Under the pieces are notes generated by a model. It did no database searches, had not been told where the DNA came from, and saw only the letters and a program-made list of their open reading frames with translations. Shown piece by piece: positions 1 to 30,278 of a stretch of 64,000 bases of DNA (the first letter of the stretch is position 1; each line of letters opens with the position of its first letter). Origin of the DNA: a virus; IMG/VR virus record IMGVR_UViG_3300028569_002824, positions 1 to 64,000 of that record, one strand, 5' to 3'. A program made the position numbers and the translations under genes.

Positions 1-257
1 CCTACAGTCACTCCAACAGAGACTCCAACACCAACAGAGACTCCAACACCAACAGAGACTCCTACAGTCACTCCAACTGAGACTCCTACACCAACAGTTA
101 CACCAACAGAGACTCCTACTCCAACAGAGACTCCTACAGTCACTCCAACAGAGACTCCAACACCAACAGAGACTCCAACACCAACAGAGACTCCTACAGT
201 CACTCCAACTGAGACTCCTACACCAACAGTTACACCAACAGAGACTCCTACTCCAAC
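1..257 (+). repeat. 132-bp higher-order tandem repeat in the Thr/Pro coding region
   Basis: Bases 1-125 recur identically at 133-257, giving a 132-bp (44-codon) unit built from smaller CCAACAGAGACT-like units. The period is a multiple of three, so the frame is kept when copies are gained or lost. The array probably extends left of the window. Confidence 0.9.
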
Positions 258-273
258 TCCTACCTCACCGTAA
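1..273 (+). CDS. C-terminal end of a Thr/Pro/Glu-repeat protein (partial)
   Basis: The frame is open from the first base to a TAA at 271-273, and the start lies outside the window. All 90 visible codons encode Thr-Pro repeats with Glu or Val inserted ([18 protein letters not shown] style) and the chain ends in PTSP. There is no hydrophobic or catalytic segment. Low-complexity Thr/Pro tails occur on phage fibre, decoration and adhesin-like proteins. The function here cannot be told from this end alone. The repeat is Thr-rich and could be an O-glycosylation substrate for the glycosyltransferases at 35554-43135, which is inference. Confidence 0.75.
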
Positions 274-289
274 TTTTAAAGCCGTTACT

Positions 290-297
290 ATTAAATA
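290..297 (+). promoter_or_regulatory. Late promoter octamer ATTAAATA
   Basis: It matches 6 of 8 bases of the T4 late element TATAAATA. The last base is 6 before the ATG at 303, so a T4-type start site would fall on the start codon itself. Confidence 0.6.
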
Positions 298-302
298 ACA
301 TT

Positions 303-746
303 ATGAAACCTTCAGATTCCTACTTGCTAGAAAAAGCATATCTATCAATTAACCAAAAATTACCATCCGTCCCCTCTGATGATATAACGGAAACTGATGA
401 AGACGACGAGGATGGCGAAGATGGCGTTGAACAACCGGAAATTGACTCTGACTTTGGTTCTGGAGAATCTGATGATAAGATTTTACACATATCCTCAGCA
501 GGAATATCAAGTGCTGCTGAAACTCCAATGGGTCACGAAAGCGAAATAGAAGCACTTCAGTTGGGTGATGACTGTTGTGAAGAAGAAATTCATGATATGA
601 ATGTGGATAATTTAAATTCTATTCGTGAAAGTATAGCAAAAATTGCTGGAGTGTGTGTACAGGGCGGTTCACTTGAACCGTGGCAGCAACAAAAAATAGC
701 AATTGCTATGGATAATTTAGCTGAAGTTGCTAGAAGAATTCACTAA
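303..746 (+). CDS. Small acidic protein, late, probably virion-associated
   Basis: 147 residues. The N-terminus (SYLLEK, with LLE at 8-10) weakly resembles the capsid-targeting leaders seen on other genes here. Residues 25-60 are very acidic (TDEDDEDGEDG). The C-terminal 50 residues form a conserved-looking helical region (NLNSIRESIAKIA, then LEPWQQQKIAIAMDNLAEVARR), a pattern I recall from uncharacterised proteins of T4-like phages. It follows the Thr/Pro-repeat gene on the same strand and has its own late octamer. Function is unknown; a small structural or head protein is the best guess. Confidence 0.75.
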   Translation: MKPSDSYLLEKAYLSINQKLPSVPSDDITETDEDDEDGEDGVEQPEIDSDFGSGESDDKILHISSAGISSAAETPMGHESEIEALQLGDDCCEEEIHDMNVDNLNSIRESIAKIAGVCVQGGSLEPWQQQKIAIAMDNLAEVARRIH

Positions 747-757
747 ATCTTTTTAGT
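742..757. terminator. Weak hairpin between convergent genes
   Basis: ACTAAA and TTTAGT form a 6-bp stem with a 4-base loop, followed by TTTAT. It spans the stop of the plus-strand gene and faces the end of the minus-strand gene at 759. The stem is short and AT-rich, so this is a tentative call. Confidence 0.25.
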
Positions 758-758
758 T

Positions 759-1139
759 TTATTTAGAGTCCAAATTAAAGGCTTTAATTAGCACGTCCTC
801 CATTACTGAAAGTATAGACAAAAATAACTTACACGGCTTTTTGTTTACGGTCTTGTCGTTTAAAGCGTCAAGCAATCCGTCTGACAGACTATTCGTATAT
901 TCCTTTACAAATTGACGCGTGTCCCTTGCAATTTCGCTAAAAATCGAATCTGTGTATTCATCTAATCGAGAAATGTCGAATGATTCGGGGTTATCTGTAA
1001 CTGTACTTTCAAACTCATCCATGTAAAAATCTTCTCTTGACTGCTGAAATGATTCTACGTGACTAAACAGATTCGCACATATCTCGTCAATTGTAGTATG
1101 TTTGTTGTTGATTAATGAAATTGCTTCTTTTGTAGTCAT
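759..1139 (-). CDS. Hypothetical protein
   Basis: 126 residues, mostly helical and acidic, without cysteine clusters, membrane segments or a motif I recognise. It starts at an ATG (MTTKEAISLI) and ends 12 bases from the convergent gene at 746. I saw no promoter of either class directly before its ATG. It may be read from the TATAAATA at 1349-1356 together with the small ORF at 1243. Confidence 0.6.
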   Translation of the reverse strand: MTTKEAISLINNKHTTIDEICANLFSHVESFQQSREDFYMDEFESTVTDNPESFDISRLDEYTDSIFSEIARDTRQFVKEYTNSLSDGLLDALNDKTVNKKPCKLFLSILSVMEDVLIKAFNLDSK

Positions 1140-1242
1140 GTATAAGTACGGTTTAATTGATTGCTACAGACGTTACTTATAAAAAACCTGAGTTATTTTA
1201 TGCAAACCGTGTTTTATGACACGCAAAAAAAAGCAAAGTTAC

Positions 1243-1335
1243 CTAATAACCCATCAAATAAAAATATACAAGAGAAGCTACCAAGAAAATTACACCAGAC
1301 AGAATTAATTTTTTGTTATTTGTATCCATATACAT
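1243..1335 (-). CDS. Very small membrane protein (30 residues)
   Basis: A short frame with ATG at 1335 (an alternative ATG at 1329 gives 28 residues). The N-terminus is charged (DTNNKK) and is followed by a continuous hydrophobic stretch (LILSGVIFLVASLVYFYLMGY) that would form one transmembrane helix. It fills a 244-bp gap otherwise without genes and lies 14 bases below a perfect TATAAATA. The hydrophobic composition argues for a real gene, but the length is close to chance. Confidence 0.4.
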   Translation of the reverse strand: MYMDTNNKKLILSGVIFLVASLVYFYLMGY

Positions 1336-1348
1336 AATTAGTTTAGGA

Positions 1349-1356
1349 TATTTATA
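1349..1356 (-). promoter_or_regulatory. Late promoter octamer TATAAATA
   Basis: An exact T4-type late element on the minus strand in the intergenic region. Its distance of 14 bases to the ATG at 1335 is longer than for the other late octamers here. Confidence 0.45.
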
Positions 1357-1383
1357 CCAAAAAACCAATATTTTTAATATTAA

Positions 1384-2085
1384 CTAAGAATCTCTAGATT
1401 CCCAAATCTCATTAATCCCTAACAATCTGTGTACACAGTTATTAATTTCTTCGTTTCGAGAGGAGTGAAAGTGACCATAAAGATGTAGAGACGGCTGACA
1501 AACTTTAAATATTTCATCCATTACTGCTCGCTCGGTCGTGAGTTCTTCTAATAAATATGCGTCTTCTCCAGCCCAACTATAAACTATTTCGTTAAATCGT
1601 TGCGGAAAACACCAAGAAGGAGCAGTATGTGTCACTAAAACATCAACCTTGCGGAGTTTAGCTTCATTAAAATTTAACCCTTCTCCACTCCAATATGAAA
1701 CTCCTTCTTTTCTCATTGTTCTATCAATCGAAGTTGCTCCACCAATAAACTGAAACATCTTACTGTTGTGCTCCATTACAGTGTAGTCTTCAATTAATTC
1801 AAAGTTGCTTAAAGCAATTCTATTGTCTCCATTGTAGTAAGATGGGTCATCGTGATTCCCTCGAATTGACAGGAATTCAATGTTAAGCTTTTTAAACTTA
1901 TCGTTTAAAGAATTTATATCATTAATTTGTTGCGGTTTTGGTGTAAACCCTACTCCCGAATCTCCTACGCTAATCAAATAACAGTTTTCCAACTTTCCTC
2001 TATTAATAAACCAAAACATTTGCTTCCAATCACCGTGGTGATCTCCAATATACAATATAGGTTTATTTTTATTTAAAGTTTTCAT
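1384..2085 (-). CDS. Calcineurin-like metallophosphoesterase
   Basis: 233 residues. The metal-binding blocks of the metallophosphoesterase superfamily appear in order: GDHHGD near residue 14, GDSGVGF near 42, GNHDDP near 75, VTHTAP near 150 and GHFHS near 205. The family hydrolyses phosphomonoesters or diesters with a two-metal centre. The substrate is unknown; phage members include RNA and protein phosphatases and nucleotidases. It is one of two such enzymes in this cluster (the other is at 2821-3510) and they are not close copies. An AATGGAG-type purine run lies before the ATG, one of the few Shine-Dalgarno-like sites in the window. Confidence 0.88.
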   Translation of the reverse strand: MKTLNKNKPILYIGDHHGDWKQMFWFINRGKLENCYLISVGDSGVGFTPKPQQINDINSLNDKFKKLNIEFLSIRGNHDDPSYYNGDNRIALSNFELIEDYTVMEHNSKMFQFIGGATSIDRTMRKEGVSYWSGEGLNFNEAKLRKVDVLVTHTAPSWCFPQRFNEIVYSWAGEDAYLLEELTTERAVMDEIFKVCQPSLHLYGHFHSSRNEEINNCVHRLLGINEIWESRDS

Positions 2086-2107
2086 GAATCTTTACTCCAT
2101 TATAATT

Positions 2108-2233
2108 TCAGTATGATTTAATTTTAATCGAACTAATTAAGGACAGCATAATACACCCAATAAATAGAAACATCAACACGAAAACCCACGTAGCACCAAC
2201 TACAAACTGCTTAATTTTTTTAGACAAGCTCAT
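2108..2233 (-). CDS. Small membrane protein (41 residues)
   Basis: An ORF too short for routine calling: MSLSKKIKQF, then a hydrophobic run (VVGATWVFVLMFLFIGCIML) and a basic tail (SSIKIKSY). This is a single transmembrane helix with positive charges at both ends. It fills the gap between the HNH gene and the phosphoesterase. An AATAAATA octamer ends exactly 6 bases before its ATG, the spacing seen at other late genes, which supports it as expressed. Confidence 0.65.
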   Translation of the reverse strand: MSLSKKIKQFVVGATWVFVLMFLFIGCIMLSLISSIKIKSY

Positions 2234-2238
2234 TTCTC

Positions 2239-2246
2239 TATTTATT
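2239..2246 (-). promoter_or_regulatory. Late promoter octamer AATAAATA
   Basis: It matches 7 of 8 bases of TATAAATA and ends 6 bases before the ATG at 2233. Confidence 0.5.
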
Positions 2247-2249
2247 TCA

Positions 2250-2831
2250 TCAATGCAAAAACCAATTCCAGTCAGGATTTTTCTCTGTGTTCTTAATAAA
2301 GAACGATACAGGCATTGTTTTTGGTTTAACAGGTTTTCTAATTAACGTGAGTCCTGCTTGTTCTGGGGTTTTATCACTTTTTTTGTCGTTTACTTCCCTG
2401 CATGCTATTACACAGTTTTCCCAAGTAGTTTTTCCACCCAAACTTCTTGGAATAATATGATCAATGTTTCCGGTTGTCTTGTTTACTTTTACACCAGTAT
2501 ACTGGCATGTAAAATTGTCTCTTTCCCATAAATTGTTTTGAGTTAACTTGACAGCTTGTTTTGGAATTTTGTCGTAAAAGCACAATACGATAATATTGGG
2601 AATTTTGATTTTATTATTAACCGTGCTGATTGTAATATCGTTGTTTAATAATTTGACGTTCTTCCATTCATTCCATTCGAGCGCGTTAATTTTGCCGTCT
2701 TCTAATAAAATTCCCTTTGCTTGACCTGCAAACATCAAAGATAAAGCGTGTCCAGCTATTGAAGTATTAATTGCTTGCCAGTTTTTATTCAACACCAGCA
2801 CTCTTTTTTGTAAAATGCTGCTAGTCGACAT
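2250..2831 (-). CDS. HNH endonuclease family protein
   Basis: 193 residues. The C-terminal half has a typical HNH fold: FTCQYTG (near 118), then DHIIPRSLGG (near 137) with the general-base His, then WENCVIACREVNDKK with the last Asn/His-type metal ligands. The N-terminal half (VLVLNKNWQAINT) matches the domain that precedes HNH in many free-standing bacterial and phage proteins. It could be a homing endonuclease, or a nuclease used against host DNA. It overlaps the upstream phosphoesterase gene by 11 bases, so the two are translated together. Confidence 0.85.
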   Translation of the reverse strand: MSTSSILQKRVLVLNKNWQAINTSIAGHALSLMFAGQAKGILLEDGKINALEWNEWKNVKLLNNDITISTVNNKIKIPNIIVLCFYDKIPKQAVKLTQNNLWERDNFTCQYTGVKVNKTTGNIDHIIPRSLGGKTTWENCVIACREVNDKKSDKTPEQAGLTLIRKPVKPKTMPVSFFIKNTEKNPDWNWFLH

Positions 2832-3510
2832 TTAATTGAAAGGGGGTTGGTTGAGACGCTGCTTTATCGTATGTAAGAGTGTCTCTACGTCCCAAATTAG
2901 ATTTGAGGTCAGCCAACGTTAAAGGAAAAGGAGCTCTTTCCACCCCTATATCTAGAGTTTTAGTTTTATATATCATTTGTCCGATTTCGCTAGAATGTAA
3001 ATTTCCATGACAATGCCCGTGAAGCATCCATGCCCCCTTTGATTGCCCGTTAAATGAAGCAAGAGGGTAGTGACTAGCAACGATTGGTTGACCATTGGCA
3101 ATGATTTCAACATAATTTGGAATAAAAATTACCTTTTTGTGTTCATCTACATCCCAAATGTTGCCTCTCAACTCTTCAAATATGTGTCTCCATCCTGAAT
3201 GATGGTTACCTGACATCACGTAGAGAATATTAAATGACATTCTTTTAATAATTTCTTTAAACCGTTCTGTAGCAGAATGTCCAAAAATAAAATCTCCTAA
3301 GTGAAATGCTGTAGAATTTATTGAATTCTTTTCGTTCCACCTACAAATAAGTTCTTCGTCGTGTTCTTCAACAGATTCAAACCCTCTCATTTTCCACAAT
3401 GGAGTTTCCCAATGATAACATGCGTGTCCAAAGTGCGTGTCTGACCAAAAACAAATATCTTGGTCGTGCTTAGATTGAATAATGATTGGTTTAAAGAATA
3501 AAAACTTCAT
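2821..3510 (-). CDS. Second calcineurin-like phosphoesterase
   Basis: 229 residues. Motifs are SDTHFGH (near 23), GDFIFGH (near 72), SGNHHSG (near 97), ASHYPL (near 145) and HGHCHGN (near 163). This arrangement is that of small phage and bacterial phosphoesterases such as the YfcE/MPP group. The Asn-His of GNHH is kept, so activity is likely; the substrate is unknown. The gene heads a three-gene minus-strand run with the HNH protein and small membrane protein, and has an early-type promoter at 3517-3544. Confidence 0.87.
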   Translation of the reverse strand: MKFLFFKPIIIQSKHDQDICFWSDTHFGHACYHWETPLWKMRGFESVEEHDEELICRWNEKNSINSTAFHLGDFIFGHSATERFKEIIKRMSFNILYVMSGNHHSGWRHIFEELRGNIWDVDEHKKVIFIPNYVEIIANGQPIVASHYPLASFNGQSKGAWMLHGHCHGNLHSSEIGQMIYKTKTLDIGVERAPFPLTLADLKSNLGRRDTLTYDKAASQPTPFQLNVD

Positions 3511-3516
3511 TAAAAA

Positions 3517-3544
3517 ATCTTACGACATCAAATCAACAAATCAA
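3517..3544 (-). promoter_or_regulatory. Early-type promoter TTGATT-N16-TAAGAT
   Basis: The -35 is at 3539-3544 and the -10 at 3517-3522, with a 16-base spacer. The -10 ends 7 bases before the ATG at 3510, predicting a leaderless transcript. Confidence 0.5.
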
Positions 3545-4380
3545 GGATGATTTCCGACTAAATCAACATACAGCGCGGCAAGTTTTTCTTTAAGTTTTTT
3601 CCAGTGATATTCAGATTTACTGATTGCTTGTATAAAGTCTGCATGAGTGGAAAAAAAGTATGGAAGAGGAAGTTCTTTATATTGAGTATATGATGGAGCG
3701 TCCGCTTTAATAAAAAGTCTAAATTCTAGTAAAAATTTTGCTAACTTTATTTCTAATATCTTTTTGCTCTCTGGCATTAATGTTTTTTCTATGTCTGTTT
3801 TCTTTTTATTGTATTCTTCTTTAATTCTAAACGCAAGCTCGGTTAGATGTGCATCAAACTCTATTGGTTCTAAAAAATATACATGCGGTTTAAACGGTTT
3901 GCCTTTAGCAATTTTTTTCGCCTCCTTTTTATATTCTTCTGATGAGTCCTTGTATTCTTGCATCCCATGAGTAAGTTCGTGATAAATAACAGATCCTAAC
4001 TCAATTTCTGATAACTGTTTAACGTTGTCGTTGTATATAACCATTAAATTGTTGACATCATCGTAAAATGCTAACGATGTTTCTGATCCACCATAAGCTA
4101 CGAGTATATTAACCTTAACTGGTTTTTTTGAGGCTAGATCAGTAAATTTAATTTTAGATAAATTTGCAATTTTTGTTATTCCTTCCTCTTTGAAATAATC
4201 TACTAGTGTAGGATCATCAGCAACGTTTTTTAATAATAATTTAGTAGTACTGTCTACTTTTTTGTAAACAGCGTTGTAAGTTAATACAATCTTGTATATG
4301 CTGCTTATTAAGGATGTGTCAATCTCTCTGAATTTTGATTCTGATAAAGATTGTTTAAAATAGTTTAAAAAATTGTCCAT
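3541..4380 (-). CDS. Putative zinc metallopeptidase with head-targeting-like leader
   Basis: 279 residues. The zincin motif HELTH is at 134-138 (IYHELTHGMQEY), with acidic candidates for a third ligand around EPIEFD at 171-176. The N-terminus (MDNFLNYFKQSLSE, then S) resembles the short leaders cleaved after LxE by T4-type prohead proteases. No signal peptide or membrane segment is seen. It is transcribed divergently from the VWA gene, which itself carries HExxH, and the shared upstream region is tandemly duplicated. A packaged peptidase acting on virion or host proteins is plausible. The substrate is not deducible. Confidence 0.75.
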   Translation of the reverse strand: MDNFLNYFKQSLSESKFREIDTSLISSIYKIVLTYNAVYKKVDSTTKLLLKNVADDPTLVDYFKEEGITKIANLSKIKFTDLASKKPVKVNILVAYGGSETSLAFYDDVNNLMVIYNDNVKQLSEIELGSVIYHELTHGMQEYKDSSEEYKKEAKKIAKGKPFKPHVYFLEPIEFDAHLTELAFRIKEEYNKKKTDIEKTLMPESKKILEIKLAKFLLEFRLFIKADAPSYTQYKELPLPYFFSTHADFIQAISKSEYHWKKLKEKLAALYVDLVGNHP

Positions 4381-20544: not shown

Positions 20545-22215
<1,671 letters not shown>

Positions 22216-22550: not shown

Positions 22551-24434
22551 TCACTTGACAACTTCAAAATCTGCGTCTACGACGTCTTCGTCGGTTTTAG
22601 TTTGAGTAGTAGAGGATTCAGAAGAAGCAGCTTGATATGCAACAGATATTGCTTCTTGAATCTTTGATTGAAGTACGTCATGTGATGTCTTAATAAGATC
22701 AATATCATCACCTTTTAGTGCCTCTGAAACTTTTGAAGATGCATCTTTAATAGATGATTTTACATCCTCAGGAATTTTATCTCCGATGTCTGCTAGCTGT
22801 TTCTCGCTTTGATATATTAGATTATCAGCACTGTTACGAAGCTCAATAGCTTCTTTGGATTTACGATCTTCTTCAGCGTGAGCTTCAGCTTCCTTTTGCA
22901 TGCGTTCAACCTCTTCGTTACTCAACCCACTAGATCCAGTAATTGATATTTTTTGCTCTTTTCCACTACCGAGATCCTTGGCCGACACACGTAAAATGCC
23001 ATTTGCATCAATATCAAACGTAACTTCAATTTGTGGAACTCCTCTAGGAGCTGAAGGAATGCCGTCCAAATGAAAGGTTCCGAGACTCTTGTTGTCTCTG
23101 CTGAGAGGACGCTCACCCTGAATTACCTTAATTTCAACACCAGGTTGGTTGTCAGCATAGGTAGAGAAAATGTTAGATTTTCTCGACGGAATAGTAGTGT
23201 TTCGTGGAATCATCGGTGTAGCAACTCCACCAGCTGTCTCTATAGCTAAAGTCAATGGGGTTACATCTAACAGCAGAACATCCTTTACGTCACCTCTGAG
23301 AACTCCACCTTGAACTGCAGCACCGATCGCTACAACTTCGTCAGGATTGACTCCTTTATTCGGCTCCTTGCCAATAAGATCACGAGCAGTATTAATAACT
23401 CTTGGCATGCGTGTCATCCCACCAACTAGTACGAGCTCGCTTATATCCCCAACATTTAATTTAGCGTCTTTAAGACAATCTCGTACAGGAACAGTCGTGC
23501 GTTCAAATAATCCATCGGTAATTTGCTCTAATTTAGATCTACTAAGTTTCTTTTGAATGTGCTTGGGTCCTGTTGAATCAGCAGTAATAAACGGTAAATT
23601 TATTTCGTACTCCTGTGCAGAAGAAAGTGCAATTTTAGCCTTTTCTCCTTCTTCTTTAATTCGTTGAATGGCATCTGATTGTGTGGATAAATTAATTCCA
23701 ACATCTGTCTGAAATTCTGAAATAATCCATTCGACTATTTTGTTGTCCCAGTCATCTCCACCCAAATGTGTATCACCATTCGTAGAAAGCACTTCAAACA
23801 CCCCTTCGTTAATTTCAAGAGCAGAAATATCAAAAGTGCCGCCACCCAAATCATAAACTACAATCTTTTCATCCTTTTTGGCGTCCAAGCCGTACGCCAA
23901 TGCTGCTGCAGTAGGTTCATTGATTATACGTTTTACGTCAAGCCCAGCAATTTTTCCTGCGTCTTTAGTAGCACTTCTTTGAGAGTCATTAAAGTAGGCT
24001 GGCACAGTGATGACAGCTTCTGTGACAGGTTCACCTAATTTAGCTTCTGCATCAGATTTAAGTTTAGACAAAATCATTGCTGATATTTCTGGTGGAGAAA
24101 ACACCTTATCTTCATCGTTGACTGTAACTTGAATGTGAGCGTCACCATTCGCTGCTCTAACAACTTTGTATGGAACCTTTTTAATCTCATCTGTTACTTC
24201 ATCAAATTTCATTCCCATGAATCGTTTGACAGAATATATTGTGTTAGATGGATTAGTAACGGCTTGTCTTTTAGCAGCCTGTCCAACAAGCCGCTCTCCA
24301 GCTTTTGTAAAAGCAACTACCGAGGGAGTAGTTCTTGCTCCTTCTGAGTTTTCCAACACTGATGGCTGATCCCCGTCAATTACTGCTACGCATGAATTTG
24401 TAGTACCTAAATCAATTCCGATAATTTTTCCCAT
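22551..24434 (-). CDS. dnaK: Chaperone DnaK (Hsp70)
   Basis: 627 residues, full length. Nucleotide-binding domain: [14 protein letters not shown] (near 5), [10 protein letters not shown] (near 194), [10 protein letters not shown] (near 335). The linker [11 protein letters not shown] near 386 and substrate domain follow, with a helical lid and the conserved end [12 protein letters not shown]. This is the bacterial-type Hsp70, which works with DnaJ and GrpE; neither is in the window, so host co-chaperones may be used. It lies 17 bases below the gene 32 stop, as part of a long minus-strand unit. Confidence 0.98.
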
Positions 24435-26400: not shown

Positions 26401-27285
26401 TTATGATTGTCTCAACAATTTAGTAAACTCTATGAATTCGTCTGTTAAATTTCCTCCTGCTGCTGATTCGTGTCCTCCTCCTGAAGCAATGCGTTGAACA
26501 AATTTAGAGACATCAATTTTATCGTTTGTGTTACTTCTTCTCACAGCAATTCTCTTTTGTTCAACCATTACTGCAATTGCTACGTCTACTGAATATTTAG
26601 TAAACAAAAAGTCACAACACTCCTGAACAAATTTGTCGCAAAATACAGCTCCAACCCTAACATCTTTAATGCCATTAAATTCAATGTTCCCAAAAAAGGG
26701 ATTTGCTTGCTTTATATATTCAGAACAATGTTTTTTGTATAGTTGTATTGTGTTTGTTTTAAACTTATCAAAAGGACCAAACCCATTATAGTAATCGTCT
26801 ACAAACGAGTTAAATTTATTTGACATCGAATGATACACAATATTTAAGCTCTCTGATAATGGAGTAGCTTTTGTGTTTGAGTCCCAATCATCAGCTAGTG
26901 CAATAAGCGTTTTTTGAGCATTTGAAATTTTTTTGCCAGTTTCTTTAAAAAACGTATCGTATATTAATTTAGCACAACTTGTCTCATTGTAAATACGAAC
27001 TATTGCATTTTTAAATGGATATATGTTTGTTTTGTGGTGATCTAAAACAACGGTTGATTTCTGATCAATTTTTTCCCCGATTTTTGAAACATCTAAATCC
27101 AAAAAATACAATTTGTCCCACGTTTTTCCAGAAGCAACAAGTCTATCAAAATCTTGCTCGAGTTTCATTGGAGTAGTTCCAACAACATCTAATTTTTTTC
27201 CATAAAGCCAGCAGAGAACCAGATAGCTTACCACACCATCTAGATCAGTATGTGTTACCACTTGTATTTTTTGTGAATTATTCAT
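26401..27285 (-). CDS. DHH-family phosphoesterase (NrnA/RecJ-like)
   Basis: 294 residues. Metal motifs THTDLDGVVS (near 11), DLDVS (near 63), the DHH box VVLDHHKTN (near 79) and DDWDSN (near 133) are followed by a DHHA1 domain with GGGHESAAGG near 271. Small members degrade oligonucleotides (nanoRNA), cyclic dinucleotides or act as single-strand exonucleases. Its start overlaps the end of the split helicase gene by 8 bases. Possible roles are recycling of short RNA or cleaving signalling dinucleotides. Confidence 0.85.
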   Translation of the reverse strand: MNNSQKIQVVTHTDLDGVVSYLVLCWLYGKKLDVVGTTPMKLEQDFDRLVASGKTWDKLYFLDLDVSKIGEKIDQKSTVVLDHHKTNIYPFKNAIVRIYNETSCAKLIYDTFFKETGKKISNAQKTLIALADDWDSNTKATPLSESLNIVYHSMSNKFNSFVDDYYNGFGPFDKFKTNTIQLYKKHCSEYIKQANPFFGNIEFNGIKDVRVGAVFCDKFVQECCDFLFTKYSVDVAIAVMVEQKRIAVRRSNTNDKIDVSKFVQRIASGGGHESAAGGNLTDEFIEFTKLLRQS

Positions 27286-27805
27286 CAGACAAGCTGTTTA
27301 GGACTTCTTCAGCATTTTTTACAGTGTCTTCAGTAGAATCTCCGTCTGACTCAAAATAGTCTGAGTTAGTCTCTTTCAGAGTCAATGTATTATAATTACA
27401 TTTAAACGCTGCAGTTCCGAAGTTGGGACCAAAGCGATTTTTCTGCATCCCCATGTTCATGATTCCCAATTCTCTATCCTCCTCTTCTTGCCACAAAGAA
27501 CAAATCACATCACAAGTTGCAGCAAGACCAATTGAGTTTTTAGTTAAAATCCCATTACAATAAAACAAACTATCCCCAGTAACCGAAATGTCTATTGTCT
27601 CCCTTTCTCCAATATATTCTATTTCAACTATTTCATCATTGTAACAAATTAAACTGTCACTGATTTTTGTTTTTTCTTCTTGTTCTTCAAAAAGCTTGGT
27701 AACTACCTCCATATACTTCTCATCGGAAGTTTCTCTGTCGGTCATTCCCAAAAGTTTCATGAATTCGACTCGTTTCGAGATGAAGTTTAATATGTTTTGG
27801 TTCAT
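27278..27805 (-). CDS. 41: C-intein plus C-terminal part of replicative helicase gp41
   Basis: 175 residues. Residues 1-47 are an extra N-terminal part; 48-90 are a C-intein (IVEIEYIGERETIDISVTGDSLFYCNGILTKN) ending in Asn90; Ser91 starts the C-extein (SIGLAATCDVICSLWQEEED, 85 residues), which matches the last part of T4 gp41 after its AESFGL site. The partner is the N-terminal half at 28821-30278. Trans-splicing would join Glu368 to Ser91 and give a 453-residue helicase (T4: 475). The usual His before the terminal Asn is Lys here. The start overlaps the homing endonuclease stop (ATGA). Confidence 0.9.
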   Translation of the reverse strand: MNQNILNFISKRVEFMKLLGMTDRETSDEKYMEVVTKLFEEQEEKTKISDSLICYNDEIVEIEYIGERETIDISVTGDSLFYCNGILTKNSIGLAATCDVICSLWQEEEDRELGIMNMGMQKNRFGPNFGTAAFKCNYNTLTLKETNSDYFESDGDSTEDTVKNAEEVLNSLSDE

Positions 27806-28908
27806 TTTAAAATTAATTTTTTTAGATAGCTAACGTCTGGTAGATTATCTGACCAAACATAAAGAATGTCAAACCCTATTTTGGATGCAACACTTTTTTT
27901 GTTTTTATCTCGTTCGTGTGAATCTTCGTATTTTACCATTGGATTTTTCCATTCTTCTTTATTTCTAGCGTGCCAAAATGGATCATTATATTCTATTATT
28001 ATTTTTTTTGACTTTATAACAAAATCAAAAGCGTAATTTTTGTTTGTTTCTTTATCAAAGGTAGTAAATTCTCTTTTATTTCCAATACCCCAAATTATAT
28101 CCTCTTTGGCAATTCCGTTTTTTCTTAATGCTTTATATAAAGGTTTAAAGTATTTTATTGAAGCTTTTGACACGTAACCATTTAATACAATCGAACCGTA
28201 TTTTTCAATTTTTGTGTCTCTTTGTTTTTTATAACACTTTTGATGTTTTTCTTTACCAACTTTTTCTCCATGTCTTTCAATAAAACTTTCCAACGTATGT
28301 GATGGAGGTATGTATTTTTTAATCTGTTTTGTTGCTTCCTCAACAGAATATCCCTTTTGAATCCAATAGTCCAAAGCTCTTCTTTTTTGTTTTGTTTCTG
28401 ATACGTTTTGATATTTTTTTCTTTTTTTGTCTAAATCTTTAGAAAGAGCTATCAATGAGGCAGCATTACCTTTTTTGCTTAATTCTGCATAATGTTCTTT
28501 TTTTTGTTTTTCTGCTTCTTCTAACGTCAACCCTTTGTTGAGCCAAAATTCGATTTTGCCAAAAGAAATTTTAGTTTTAGCTTTGTCTTTTAATAAATTA
28601 GAAAACGTTGTGCCTGATCCTTCTCCGTACCTTATATCCAATTGCCTCAACCTTAAAGTGTTAATGTTGTGATATTCTTTAACCAGGCTCTTAAAAACTA
28701 ATTTGTCAACATTTGAATTAGTTTCAAATAAATTATGTAATAGTTTTAATCTGTTTTGGAATTTAGATTGTGTTAGAGGATACAAATTGAATTCCAAACA
28801 ATACCATTCAAATAGATCATTTAAATAAAAGAATTTTTTGCCCCATCTTTTGAAAAAAAGCTCAAAATCTTTTTTATCGTCGCATTTAATATAGTTTCTT
28901 TTTTGCAT
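27802..28908 (-). CDS. Free-standing homing endonuclease (Vsr-like, EDxHD type) between helicase halves
   Basis: 368 residues. The C-terminal third has a Vsr/very-short-patch-repair-like nuclease fold: YAFDFVIKSKKIIIEYNDPFWH, then YEDSHERDKNKKSVASKIGF and ILYVWSD. The middle has two copies of a short repeat (FWLNKGLTLEEAEKQ and YWIQKGYSVEEATKQ), typical of DNA-recognition modules in mobile nucleases. It lies exactly between the two intein halves, as in the fractured genes described for marine phages, and overlaps the N-half by 88 bases. It should cut helicase genes lacking the insertion and so spread the element. Confidence 0.85.
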   Translation of the reverse strand: MQKRNYIKCDDKKDFELFFKRWGKKFFYLNDLFEWYCLEFNLYPLTQSKFQNRLKLLHNLFETNSNVDKLVFKSLVKEYHNINTLRLRQLDIRYGEGSGTTFSNLLKDKAKTKISFGKIEFWLNKGLTLEEAEKQKKEHYAELSKKGNAASLIALSKDLDKKRKKYQNVSETKQKRRALDYWIQKGYSVEEATKQIKKYIPPSHTLESFIERHGEKVGKEKHQKCYKKQRDTKIEKYGSIVLNGYVSKASIKYFKPLYKALRKNGIAKEDIIWGIGNKREFTTFDKETNKNYAFDFVIKSKKIIIEYNDPFWHARNKEEWKNPMVKYEDSHERDKNKKSVASKIGFDILYVWSDNLPDVSYLKKLILK

Positions 28909-30278
28909 ACTATACTATTTAATCTATCCCCTACTCGAATTCCCTCGACTATAGATATTCTTCCTCTATTTGTTGGAAATTTGTGCTTGTCACTTACAAT
29001 AATCTCCTTGCCAGTTTTAAGCTTAATTCTATAGCAAGGTTTAATTTTTTTGTGATGAACTTGCGTTACGGTTTTAAATCCATCATTAGCTGTCACTTGA
29101 TCTCCAAATTCAATATCTCCTATTCTTTTTTGTGTTCCGTCTCTTAGAGTTACGATCTGATTTACCTCAATGCACTCAGATATTCCTTCCATTCCAGGTG
29201 ACGCTGTATTAAAGCTTCCTCTATTTAACTGAGTAGCTGAAACAATCGGAATATTATATTTAAACGACATTGCCCTTAAATGTTCTGCAATCTCCTTGAC
29301 TGACTCGTACGAATTTAAATTTTTTGCAATCGGGTGTATAAGATTGATATAATCTATCACTACAATATCTGGAACAAACCCCTTGTGTTTTAATTTAGTA
29401 ATAAATGAATCAATTTGTCTGACAGTAACAGTTTTAGGAGGATATTCCTTAACGACGAGCTTGCTGCTAATGTTTTTTCTAATGTGACTTAATTGTTCTT
29501 TGAGCTCCTCAGTGAAAGTTTTAAGATCTCCATGTGGAATTTGAGTAAGCTGAGTACTAATTCGCTTAGAGTACATAAATTCTGACATCTCAAGTGTGAT
29601 TAGTAACACATTTTTATCAGCTAAAAGCATGTTGGTTGAGATGTTTCCTAACACAATTGATTTTCCTACGTTAACTTGCCCAGCAAACACAGTTAGCGTT
29701 TTTGGAAATAAGCCACCTTCTGTTCTGTCGTCAAAAAACTTCCAACCGGTTGGAATTGGGTTATATGTTGTAGTTAAGTCTTTTATATGTTTTTCTACAT
29801 CCTCGAAATACCAGTGACCGAGATTTTCCTTTAATGTAATATTATATGCTTTTTCAAAATCGACTAAAATCTCCTCAATATTGAGTGTTTGCTCTGTAAA
29901 TTTTTCTGCTATATTTACTATAGTCTTGTATACATAACGTTCCTTGAGAAAACGCTCAGTATTTTGTATAAGTTCATCTTTATTGAAAGGACCTTCAAGC
30001 GCGGCTAACTTCGGTTTAATTTCAGATAGTGCTTTTTTATCTTCATCGGAAGTAAGTCTTGCTTTAATTTCTGAAATAGTAGGAACACTTCCCCTTTCCG
30101 TAAAAAAGCTACTTATTTGCTTAATAATTTTACCTATATTTTTGTCATTAAAGTGAGACTGATCAATATACCCTATAATTGAACTTAAATATTCTTGATC
30201 TAAGAATACATTATATAATAAAATATTTTCGAAGAAATCTAAATCTAGTTTTGCTGGTTGAGCGAGTTCTTTAGCCAT
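28821..30278 (-). CDS. 41: N-terminal part of replicative helicase gp41 fused to an N-intein
   Basis: 485 residues. Residues 1-368 are a DnaB-type helicase: Walker A GQVNVGKS at 200-207, Walker B IVVIDYINLIHP near 305, and SATQLNRGSF near 347. At Cys369 an intein begins: CIEVNQIVTLRDGTQKR, then IGDIEFGDQVTANDG, and the block-B region DKHKFPTNRG. The intein half runs to residue 485, with about 25 residues past its normal end that lie in the overlap with the nuclease gene. The break lies at the same helicase position as the T4 sequence AE/SFGL. Together with 27278-27805 this encodes the fork helicase. Confidence 0.93.
   Translation of the reverse strand: MAKELAQPAKLDLDFFENILLYNVFLDQEYLSSIIGYIDQSHFNDKNIGKIIKQISSFFTERGSVPTISEIKARLTSDEDKKALSEIKPKLAALEGPFNKDELIQNTERFLKERYVYKTIVNIAEKFTEQTLNIEEILVDFEKAYNITLKENLGHWYFEDVEKHIKDLTTTYNPIPTGWKFFDDRTEGGLFPKTLTVFAGQVNVGKSIVLGNISTNMLLADKNVLLITLEMSEFMYSKRISTQLTQIPHGDLKTFTEELKEQLSHIRKNISSKLVVKEYPPKTVTVRQIDSFITKLKHKGFVPDIVVIDYINLIHPIAKNLNSYESVKEIAEHLRAMSFKYNIPIVSATQLNRGSFNTASPGMEGISECIEVNQIVTLRDGTQKRIGDIEFGDQVTANDGFKTVTQVHHKKIKPCYRIKLKTGKEIIVSDKHKFPTNRGRISIVEGIRVGDRLNSIVCKKETILNATIKKILSFFSKDGAKNSFI

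What the first reader, a model, noticed from the sequence alone, without database searches (positions are those of the whole stretch)
27278..30278. Helicase gene 41 split by a trans-splicing intein with a homing endonuclease inside
The N-half ends in an N-intein beginning at Cys369, the C-half begins with a C-intein ending Asn90|Ser91, and a separate EDxHD/Vsr-like endonuclease gene lies between. The joined product matches T4 gp41 across the ...ISE|S... junction. This is the fractured-gene arrangement described from marine metagenomes (gp41-1, gp41-8 inteins). It is an essential gene that works only after protein trans-splicing.
Basis: partly seen in the sequence, partly recalled or inferred. 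Interest (0 to 1): 0.85.

Follow-up and report, generated by a model that had tools for sequence, protein, structure and literature searches.

The report
Phage helicase gene split by intein cassette
A T4-like phage makes its replication helicase as two separate proteins that a split intein should join, with a DNA-cutting gene lying between the two halves; related phages show that the whole package jumps between genomes as one unit, a known kind of 'fractured gene' at a site and in a form different from the textbook examples.

Summary
Gene 41 is broken into an N-half (30278-28821, minus strand; N-intein from Cys369), an EDxHD/Vsr-type endonuclease gene (28908-27802) and a C-half (27805-27278; C-intein ending Asn90|Ser91). 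The genes overlap by 88 and 4 nt. The joined exteins align without a gap to T4-type gp41, and no second gp41 was found in the 124-kb record (which may be a fragment). This is a Dassa-type fractured gene, but at a different site (ISE|S, H4 DNA-binding loop) from gp41-1 (TRSGY|). In the sampled contigs this site holds a separate intein lineage: penultimate Lys in 39/39 distinct C-inteins (His in 54/54 elsewhere), usually with a helical ~50-aa C-intein extension. New evidence: a second phage carries the same 1,639-nt cassette at 97% nt identity while the flanking exteins are 76% identical, with edges at the intein junctions. Split alleles lie scattered among intact ones on the gp41 tree. Relatives show intact, decayed and deleted endonuclease genes with the split intein retained. 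A phage isolate, Shigella phage ESh36, has the same fracture; its relative ESh31 has the empty site. Splicing and cleavage themselves remain inferred. Kind known; new member, with variant features.

The parts
28821..30278 (-). gp41 N-half gene (485 aa): N-extein + N-intein
   Evidence: ORF and translation; DnaB_C and PHROG 19
29175..30278 (-). N-extein, residues 1-368 of helicase gp41 (ends ...GMEGISE)
   Evidence: aligns with T4-type gp41 8dtp to the junction
28911..29174 (-). N-intein core, Cys369 to ~residue 456 (blocks A and B, SDKH motif)
   Evidence: 6qaz gp41-1 intein 4e-11; conserved in alignment A1
28824..28910 (-). C-terminal tail of the N-intein protein (29 aa), absent from ESh36 and gp41-1
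   Evidence: alignment A1; gp41-1 sequence in PMC7895425
27802..28908 (-). free-standing EDxHD/Vsr-type homing endonuclease gene (368 aa)
   Evidence: DUF559 20.9 bits vs cutoff 20.6; AlphaFold mean pLDDT 84, Foldseek Vsr prob 1.00 and I-Bth0305I prob 0.99
27805..28167 (-). predicted nuclease domain, residues 248-368; conserved E280, D295, E306, H313, D334
   Evidence: alignments A3 and A4; fold search
28821..28908 (-). 88-nt overlap of endonuclease start with N-intein tail
   Evidence: coordinates; overlaps of similar length in L002, L003, L042
27802..27805 (-). ATGA overlap: endonuclease stop / C-half start
   Evidence: sequence
27278..27805 (-). gp41 C-half gene (175 aa): C-intein + C-extein
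27644..27805 (-). N-terminal extension of the C-intein (~54 aa; two predicted helices 3-18 and 28-47, pLDDT about 80)
   Evidence: alignment A5, model
27536..27643 (-). C-intein core, residues 55-90, ending GILTKN (blocks F and G; penultimate Lys)
   Evidence: 6qaz 2.6e-4; alignments A2 and A5
27278..27535 (-). C-extein, Ser91 to end of gp41
   Evidence: PHROG 19; 8dtp
27536..29174 (-). mobile unit: 1,639-nt IntN-endonuclease-IntC cassette with edges at the splice junctions
   Evidence: 97.4% identical to L002 inside, 75.7% in exteins

Best explanation
This is a fractured gene 41 of a T4-like phage. The two halves of the replicative helicase are translated separately. Their intein fragments associate, Cys369 and Ser91 act as nucleophiles, Asn90 cyclises, and ...GISE is joined to SIGL... 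to give a 453-aa gp41. Between the halves sits an EDxHD/Vsr-family homing endonuclease gene that probably cuts the intact gp41 site in a co-infecting phage, so that break repair copies the whole IntN-endonuclease-IntC cassette as one unit. Shown by sequence: the anatomy, the exact fit of the exteins to gp41, recent transfer of the cassette with edges at the intein junctions, selection on the parts, and endonuclease decay with the split intein retained. Inferred: that the two proteins splice, that the endonuclease cuts this site, and that the C-intein extension helps the fragments dock.
For: Intein halves and gp41 exteins. Catalytic positions (Cys1, block-B His, block-F Asp, Asn, Ser+1) conserved in the aligned site alleles. 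Endonuclease fold. Homing signature: against L002 the cassette is 97.4% identical and the exteins 75.7%, changing at the two splice junctions; synonymous difference pS 0.84 (N-extein), 0.02 (N-intein), 0.10 (endonuclease), 0.18 (C-intein), 0.54 (C-extein); endonuclease dN/dS about 0.13 both against L002 and against L042. On the gp41 tree window, L002, L005 and L004 each pair with an intact allele, and L042 lies in the same mixed clade. Exteins of split and intact alleles are under similar purifying selection (N-extein pN/pS 0.11-0.16 vs 0.12-0.13). Endonuclease broken in L005, cut down to its 3' end in L146, no gene found in several others, with split inteins kept. ESh36, a phage isolate, carries the same fracture, and of 599 records matching its gp41 region only ESh36 covers the cassette.
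Against: No splicing or cleavage assay. The penultimate His used by most inteins is Lys here. The C-half model is poor in the intein part (pLDDT about 40-60), as expected for half a fold. Foldseek E-values for the endonuclease are modest (2e-3 to 8e-2) though probabilities are 0.99-1.0. The record is 124 kb and may be a fragment, so a second gp41 cannot be fully excluded. L005 and other relatives are single metagenome contigs.
Confidence: 0.9

Rival explanations
1. The two halves work as a two-subunit helicase without being joined, as reported for some split phage enzymes, and the intein pieces are leftovers.
For: Split phage genes that work as separate subunits are known (the split ribonucleotide reductase case cited in PMC10448857). 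The penultimate His is missing here.
Against: All splicing nucleophiles are conserved in the aligned site alleles, including alleles with no endonuclease gene. The break falls at the H4-type DNA-binding loop, where an unjoined end plus a ~90-120-residue intein tail should disable the hexamer pore.
Confidence: 0.05
2. Trans-splicing happens but is slow or conditional; the penultimate Lys and the extra extensions make the intein a switch that times helicase assembly.
For: Penultimate Lys in 39 of 39 distinct site C-inteins against His in all 54 others; conserved extension. Inteins as conditional elements in replicative helicases are described (M. smegmatis DnaB, PMC6195587).
Against: Cyanobacterial DnaE split inteins lack this His (PMC5874633) and Npu DnaE splices fast (PMC4031507). 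Conservation could simply be descent within one lineage.
Confidence: 0.12
3. The endonuclease is not what moves the cassette; ordinary phage recombination in conserved gp41 exchanged it.
For: T4-like phages recombine freely; cleavage was not tested.
Against: Identity changes at the two splice junctions, with flanks 83-84% identical within 100 nt, not at scattered crossover points. The endonuclease differences from L002 are mostly synonymous, and split alleles are scattered among intact ones.
Confidence: 0.1
4. A broken gene or a misassembly, with an intact gp41 elsewhere in the genome.
For: The record is a metagenome contig and may be incomplete.
Against: One gp41 match in 124 kb; the same architecture in several contigs and a phage isolate; both halves open and under purifying selection.
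Confidence: 0.02

Closest known systems
Fractured genes with split inteins and a Vsr-related free-standing homing endonuclease (Dassa et al. 2009, NAR 37:2560; cited; full text not held, content from memory)
   Same: Conserved DNA-replication gene broken by a split intein with a separate Vsr/EDxHD endonuclease gene in the break; phage origin.
   Different: Whether ISE|S-site alleles were among their gp41 loci could not be checked. Shown here in addition: sharp-edged transfer of the cassette, decay series, a phage isolate with an empty-site relative.
gp41-1 split intein (6qaz/6riz; sequence and TRSGY junction in PMC7895425)
   Same: Closest solved structures to both intein halves; same host gene; class-1-type Cys/Ser junctions; split at the usual endonuclease position.
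   Different: Inserted about 11 residues downstream (GISE|S, not TRSGY|S); penultimate Lys instead of His; ~50-aa extension on the C-intein (gp41-1 IntC is 37 aa) and 29-aa tail on the N-intein; separate clade in the tree.
Shigella phage ESh36 gp41 (ON528746; annotated as two 'DNA primase/helicase' genes around a hypothetical protein)
   Same: Same insertion site (DIAE|S), LTKN|S, long C-intein extension, endonuclease gene between.
   Different: Divergent endonuclease (24% identity); N-intein without tail. The intein is not mentioned in its source paper (PMC9686686).
DnaB intein site a (M. smegmatis DnaBi2 / M. tuberculosis DnaB, H4 motif; PMC6195587)
   Same: Same DNA-binding loop of a DnaB-family helicase; Cys1 and Ser+1.
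   Different: That intein is contiguous with an internal endonuclease domain; the site here is two residues upstream in the alignment.
Aeromonas phage Aes123 split DNA polymerase gp43 with VSR endonuclease (JN377899; Aes123 PolB1 intein, PMC11923092)
   Same: N-intein gene, Vsr-like endonuclease gene and C-intein gene overlapping in series.
   Different: Different host gene; cysteine-less intein.

Membership tests
Fractured gene (Dassa type) | A conserved enzyme gene broken in two, one intein half fused to each part | tested here: met
Fractured gene (Dassa type) | Free-standing endonuclease gene between the two parts | tested here: met
   P0003, own start and stop, overlaps 88 and 4 nt
Fractured gene (Dassa type) | Joined exteins equal the uninterrupted enzyme | tested here: met
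   Ungapped junction against 8dtp and against 30 intact relatives
Class 1-type split intein | Cys1, block-B His, C-terminal Asn, Ser/Cys/Thr +1 | tested here: met
   Conserved in alignments
Class 1-type split intein | Penultimate His (common, not obligatory) | tested here: not met
   Lys in 39/39 distinct site C-inteins; DnaE split inteins also lack this His (PMC5874633)
Class 1-type split intein | Splices in trans | not testable with these tools
   Needs co-expression; indirect support from conservation and from ESh36
gp41-1 intein allele | Inserted at the gp41-1 site (TRSGY|) | tested here: not met
   Site is GISE|S; gp41-1 N-extein is TRSGY
EDxHD / Vsr homing endonuclease | Vsr-like nuclease fold with conserved E, D, H, D | tested here: met
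   Foldseek prob 1.00 (1cw0, 1vsr) and 0.99 (3r3p); E280, D295, H313 invariant, D334 nearly so in A4. Residue-by-residue match to the catalytic motif not checked on the structures
EDxHD / Vsr homing endonuclease | Separate DNA-recognition region plus nuclease domain | tested here: inconclusive
   About 240 residues of helices precede the nuclease domain; no known DNA-binding domain identified
EDxHD / Vsr homing endonuclease | Cuts the empty allele and drives its own copying | not testable with these tools
   Indirect:

The most novel reading that the evidence does not exclude
The ISE|S cassette is an unusually well documented case of a split intein and a separate endonuclease gene homing as one three-gene unit, built on a split-intein lineage that uses Lys in place of the penultimate His and has its own docking helices on the C-intein. 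Repeated fracture by such units can go further: contig L209 encodes gp41 as three proteins with a 12-residue middle extein (and L143 has a 15-residue middle piece), so that the helicase would need two trans-splicing reactions.
Probability: 0.4. Interest if true: 0.75.

Novelty: new member of a known kind. Interest (0 to 1): 0.55.

Why it matters
Fractured genes were found in metagenomes and, as far as I could read, their mobility as a unit had not been shown. Here the same cassette sits in two divergent phages with edges at the splice junctions, endonuclease decay stages are visible, and a phage isolate pair (ESh36 occupied, ESh31 empty) makes homing and trans-splicing of an essential helicase testable in infected cells. 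A split-intein lineage with penultimate Lys and possible built-in docking helices is also of use to protein engineers, since gp41-1 is a widely used tool.

Tried and rejected
Full text of Dassa 2009: not held, so its list of gp41 sites could not be compared. phmmer of the endonuclease against PDB: no hit; the fold search was needed. PF20659 (malate synthase C-terminal, 2e-4) on the endonuclease is below its curated cut-off and lies in the helical region; rejected. AlphaFold of the C-half: intein part unreliable; no conclusion about the fold drawn from it. Endonuclease fossil in the L122 and L135 gaps: L122 scored 35 against a shuffled maximum of 34, L135 inside the shuffled range; not claimed. 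A site-B intein in bacterial genomes: none confirmed in one pattern-based scan, which is not proof of absence. No contiguous (cis) intein at the ISE|S site was seen in the contigs scanned.
Full report
Check of the observation. The region holds three minus-strand genes. P0001 (30278-28821) is gp41 residues 1-368 followed by an N-intein that starts at Cys369. P0003 (28908-27802) is a 368-aa endonuclease gene that starts inside the N-intein tail (88-nt overlap). P0002 (27805-27278) starts on the endonuclease stop (ATGA) and is a C-intein of 90 aa ending LTKN, then Ser91 and the rest of gp41 (85 residues). Helicase: DnaB_C 4e-23, PHROG 19 3e-66 and 1.2e-8 for the halves. Intein: both halves match the gp41-1 intein structure 6qaz. 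The joined 453-aa product aligns through the junction, without a gap, to the T4-type gp41 crystal sequence 8dtp. The 124,473-bp record has one gp41 match; neighbours are UvsX (RecA family), a family B DNA polymerase and gp32, a T4-like replication module.

Insertion site. The joint GISE|SIGLAATCD corresponds to DIAE|SAGLPATAD in T4-type gp41 and to the DSGGIEQDAD stretch of DnaB. DnaB intein site a lies in the H4 DNA-binding loop with Gly at -1 and Ser at +1 (PMC6195587), two residues downstream in this alignment.

Relatives. Pattern scans of viral contigs gave many intact gp41 genes (30 full-length ones in the tree) and a set of split ones. Across all fetched loci, 37 distinct C-intein sequences were classed at the ISE|S site by their downstream residues and all have penultimate Lys; the two further Lys cases (L274, L290) are at the same site by their N-side, so 39 of 39 have Lys, while all 54 others have His. 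With those two still counted among the others the Fisher P was 6e-24; the sequences are related, so this measures a lineage trait and not 39 independent events. In a FastTree of splicing domains the ISE|S alleles fall apart from gp41-1 and the upstream-site alleles (support 0.98). Most ISE|S C-inteins carry more than 50 residues ahead of the conserved block (stop-to-stop count; exceptions include L175, L184 and L193). In the model of the window's C-half this extension is two helices with pLDDT about 80, while the intein part is unreliable.

Mobility. L002 carries a cassette of the same length. Inside it 1,597 of 1,639 nt are identical to the window; in the exteins 1,029 of 1,359. In 75-nt windows identity goes from 0.84 to 0.99 at the first junction and from 0.96 to 0.83 at the second. 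pS is 0.84 in the N-extein, 0.02 in the N-intein, 0.10 in the endonuclease, 0.18 in the C-intein and 0.54 in the C-extein. On the extein tree the window pairs with intact L009 (0.997), L002 with intact L006 (1.000), L005 with intact L007 (0.908), L004 with intact L018 (0.928); L042 lies in the same mixed clade. Repeated gain by transfer is the simplest reading, because loss would need exact excision of 1.6 kb.

Endonuclease. The model has mean pLDDT 84. Best structural matches are E. coli Vsr (1cw0, 1vsr; prob 1.00) and the homing endonuclease I-Bth0305I catalytic domain (3r3p; prob 0.99), with modest E-values. E280, D295 and H313 are invariant and E306 and D334 nearly invariant in 12 relatives. 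The EDxHD enzyme I-Bth0305I binds a very long target (PMC3943268). dN/dS is about 0.13 against L002 and 0.14 against L042, so the enzyme has been under purifying selection.

Decay. In L005 the endonuclease has a large internal deletion, the remaining ends lie in different frames, and both intein halves are open. In L146 only the 3' end of an L144-like endonuclease remains (100 nt matching at about 96% across the end; score 128 against a shuffled maximum of 33 for the gap). L034, L120, L124/L125 and L126 have gaps of at most 10 nt or overlaps and no endonuclease gene; L122, L135 and L175 have short gaps without a recognisable one. The split intein outlives its endonuclease, as expected if it cannot be dropped from an essential gene.

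An isolate. Shigella phage ESh36 (ON528746, sewage isolate, PMC9686686; GenBank marks the record UNVERIFIED) has a gp41 broken by a 1,553-nt cassette at DIAE|S, with LTKN|S and its own endonuclease. ESh31 from the same study is 97.5% identical in the exteins and uninterrupted; of 599 records matching the ESh36 gp41 region only ESh36 itself covers the cassette. Since T4 gene 41 is needed for replication (general knowledge) and only one gp41 place was found in ESh36, its isolation as a phage argues that this arrangement makes working helicase.

Mechanism and limits. Likely sequence: translation of the halves from adjoining genes; docking of the intein fragments, perhaps helped by the C-intein helices and N-intein tail; N-S shift at Cys369, transesterification to Ser91, Asn90 cyclisation, extein ligation; and, in mixed infection, cutting of an intact gp41 by P0003 and copying of the cassette. 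Lys89 in place of His is compatible with splicing, because cyanobacterial DnaE split inteins also lack this His (PMC5874633). Splicing, cleavage and docking were not tested.

Verdict. Confirmed; kind already described by Dassa et al. 2009 (from memory, full text not held); a new member with variant features whose earlier description could not be checked.

Noticed in passing
L209 (IMGVR_UViG_3300000116_008562) 207-4285: gp41 in three pieces: N-part ending TRSGY|C (gp41-1-type site), a GIY-YIG-like endonuclease ORF (motif read by eye), a 183-aa middle ORF made of C-intein + 12-residue extein SNSDLGLEDTSE + N-intein of the ISE/TSE|S site, an EDxHD endonuclease, and the C-part LTKN|SFGLPATADF. Two trans-splicing steps would be needed to make one helicase.
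   Followed up: partly
L143 (IMGVR_UViG_3300045999_007248) 2197-4225: Same middle-piece type...LTHN|SGFSNSDLSLTDTSE|C..., 60% identical to L209's, with a short endonuclease-like ORF (3555-3851) before it; the fetched stretch ends inside the N-intein.
   Followed up: partly
L193, L194 2981-5770: gp41 apparently split both at the P-loop (ORF starting with intein sequence...LSHN|SAFLANMAA) and at the ISE|S site; L126 has a contiguous intein in the P-loop plus the split ISE|S intein.
   Followed up: no
L034 4397-8377; L120 869-1720: In L034 gp41 carries a contiguous mini-intein at QLNR|C and the split ISE|S intein; the neighbouring UvsX has a contiguous mini-intein at GPES|C. In L120 UvsX is cut after ...GQRAKA by an N-intein.
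   Followed up: no
L150/L157 versus L152/L165/L172: At the upstream QGNR|C site nearly the same intein occurs both contiguous and split with an endonuclease gene in the break, a direct view of cis-to-split change or its reverse.
   Followed up: no
window 22551-24434 and 20545-22176: Hsp70 (Pfam 1e-255) and a Cpn60 chaperonin (1e-78) genes in the phage genome near gp32.
   Followed up: no
window 26401-27285: DHH/DHHA1 family protein gene overlapping the end of the gp41 C-half by 8 nt; a homologue also follows gp41 in L005 and L068.
   Followed up: no
L113 (Vibrio phage vB_VmeM-32) 134-2957: UvsX C-part begins with a C-intein and a relative of the window endonuclease lies downstream of it: possibly another fractured gene in a phage isolate.
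   Followed up: no
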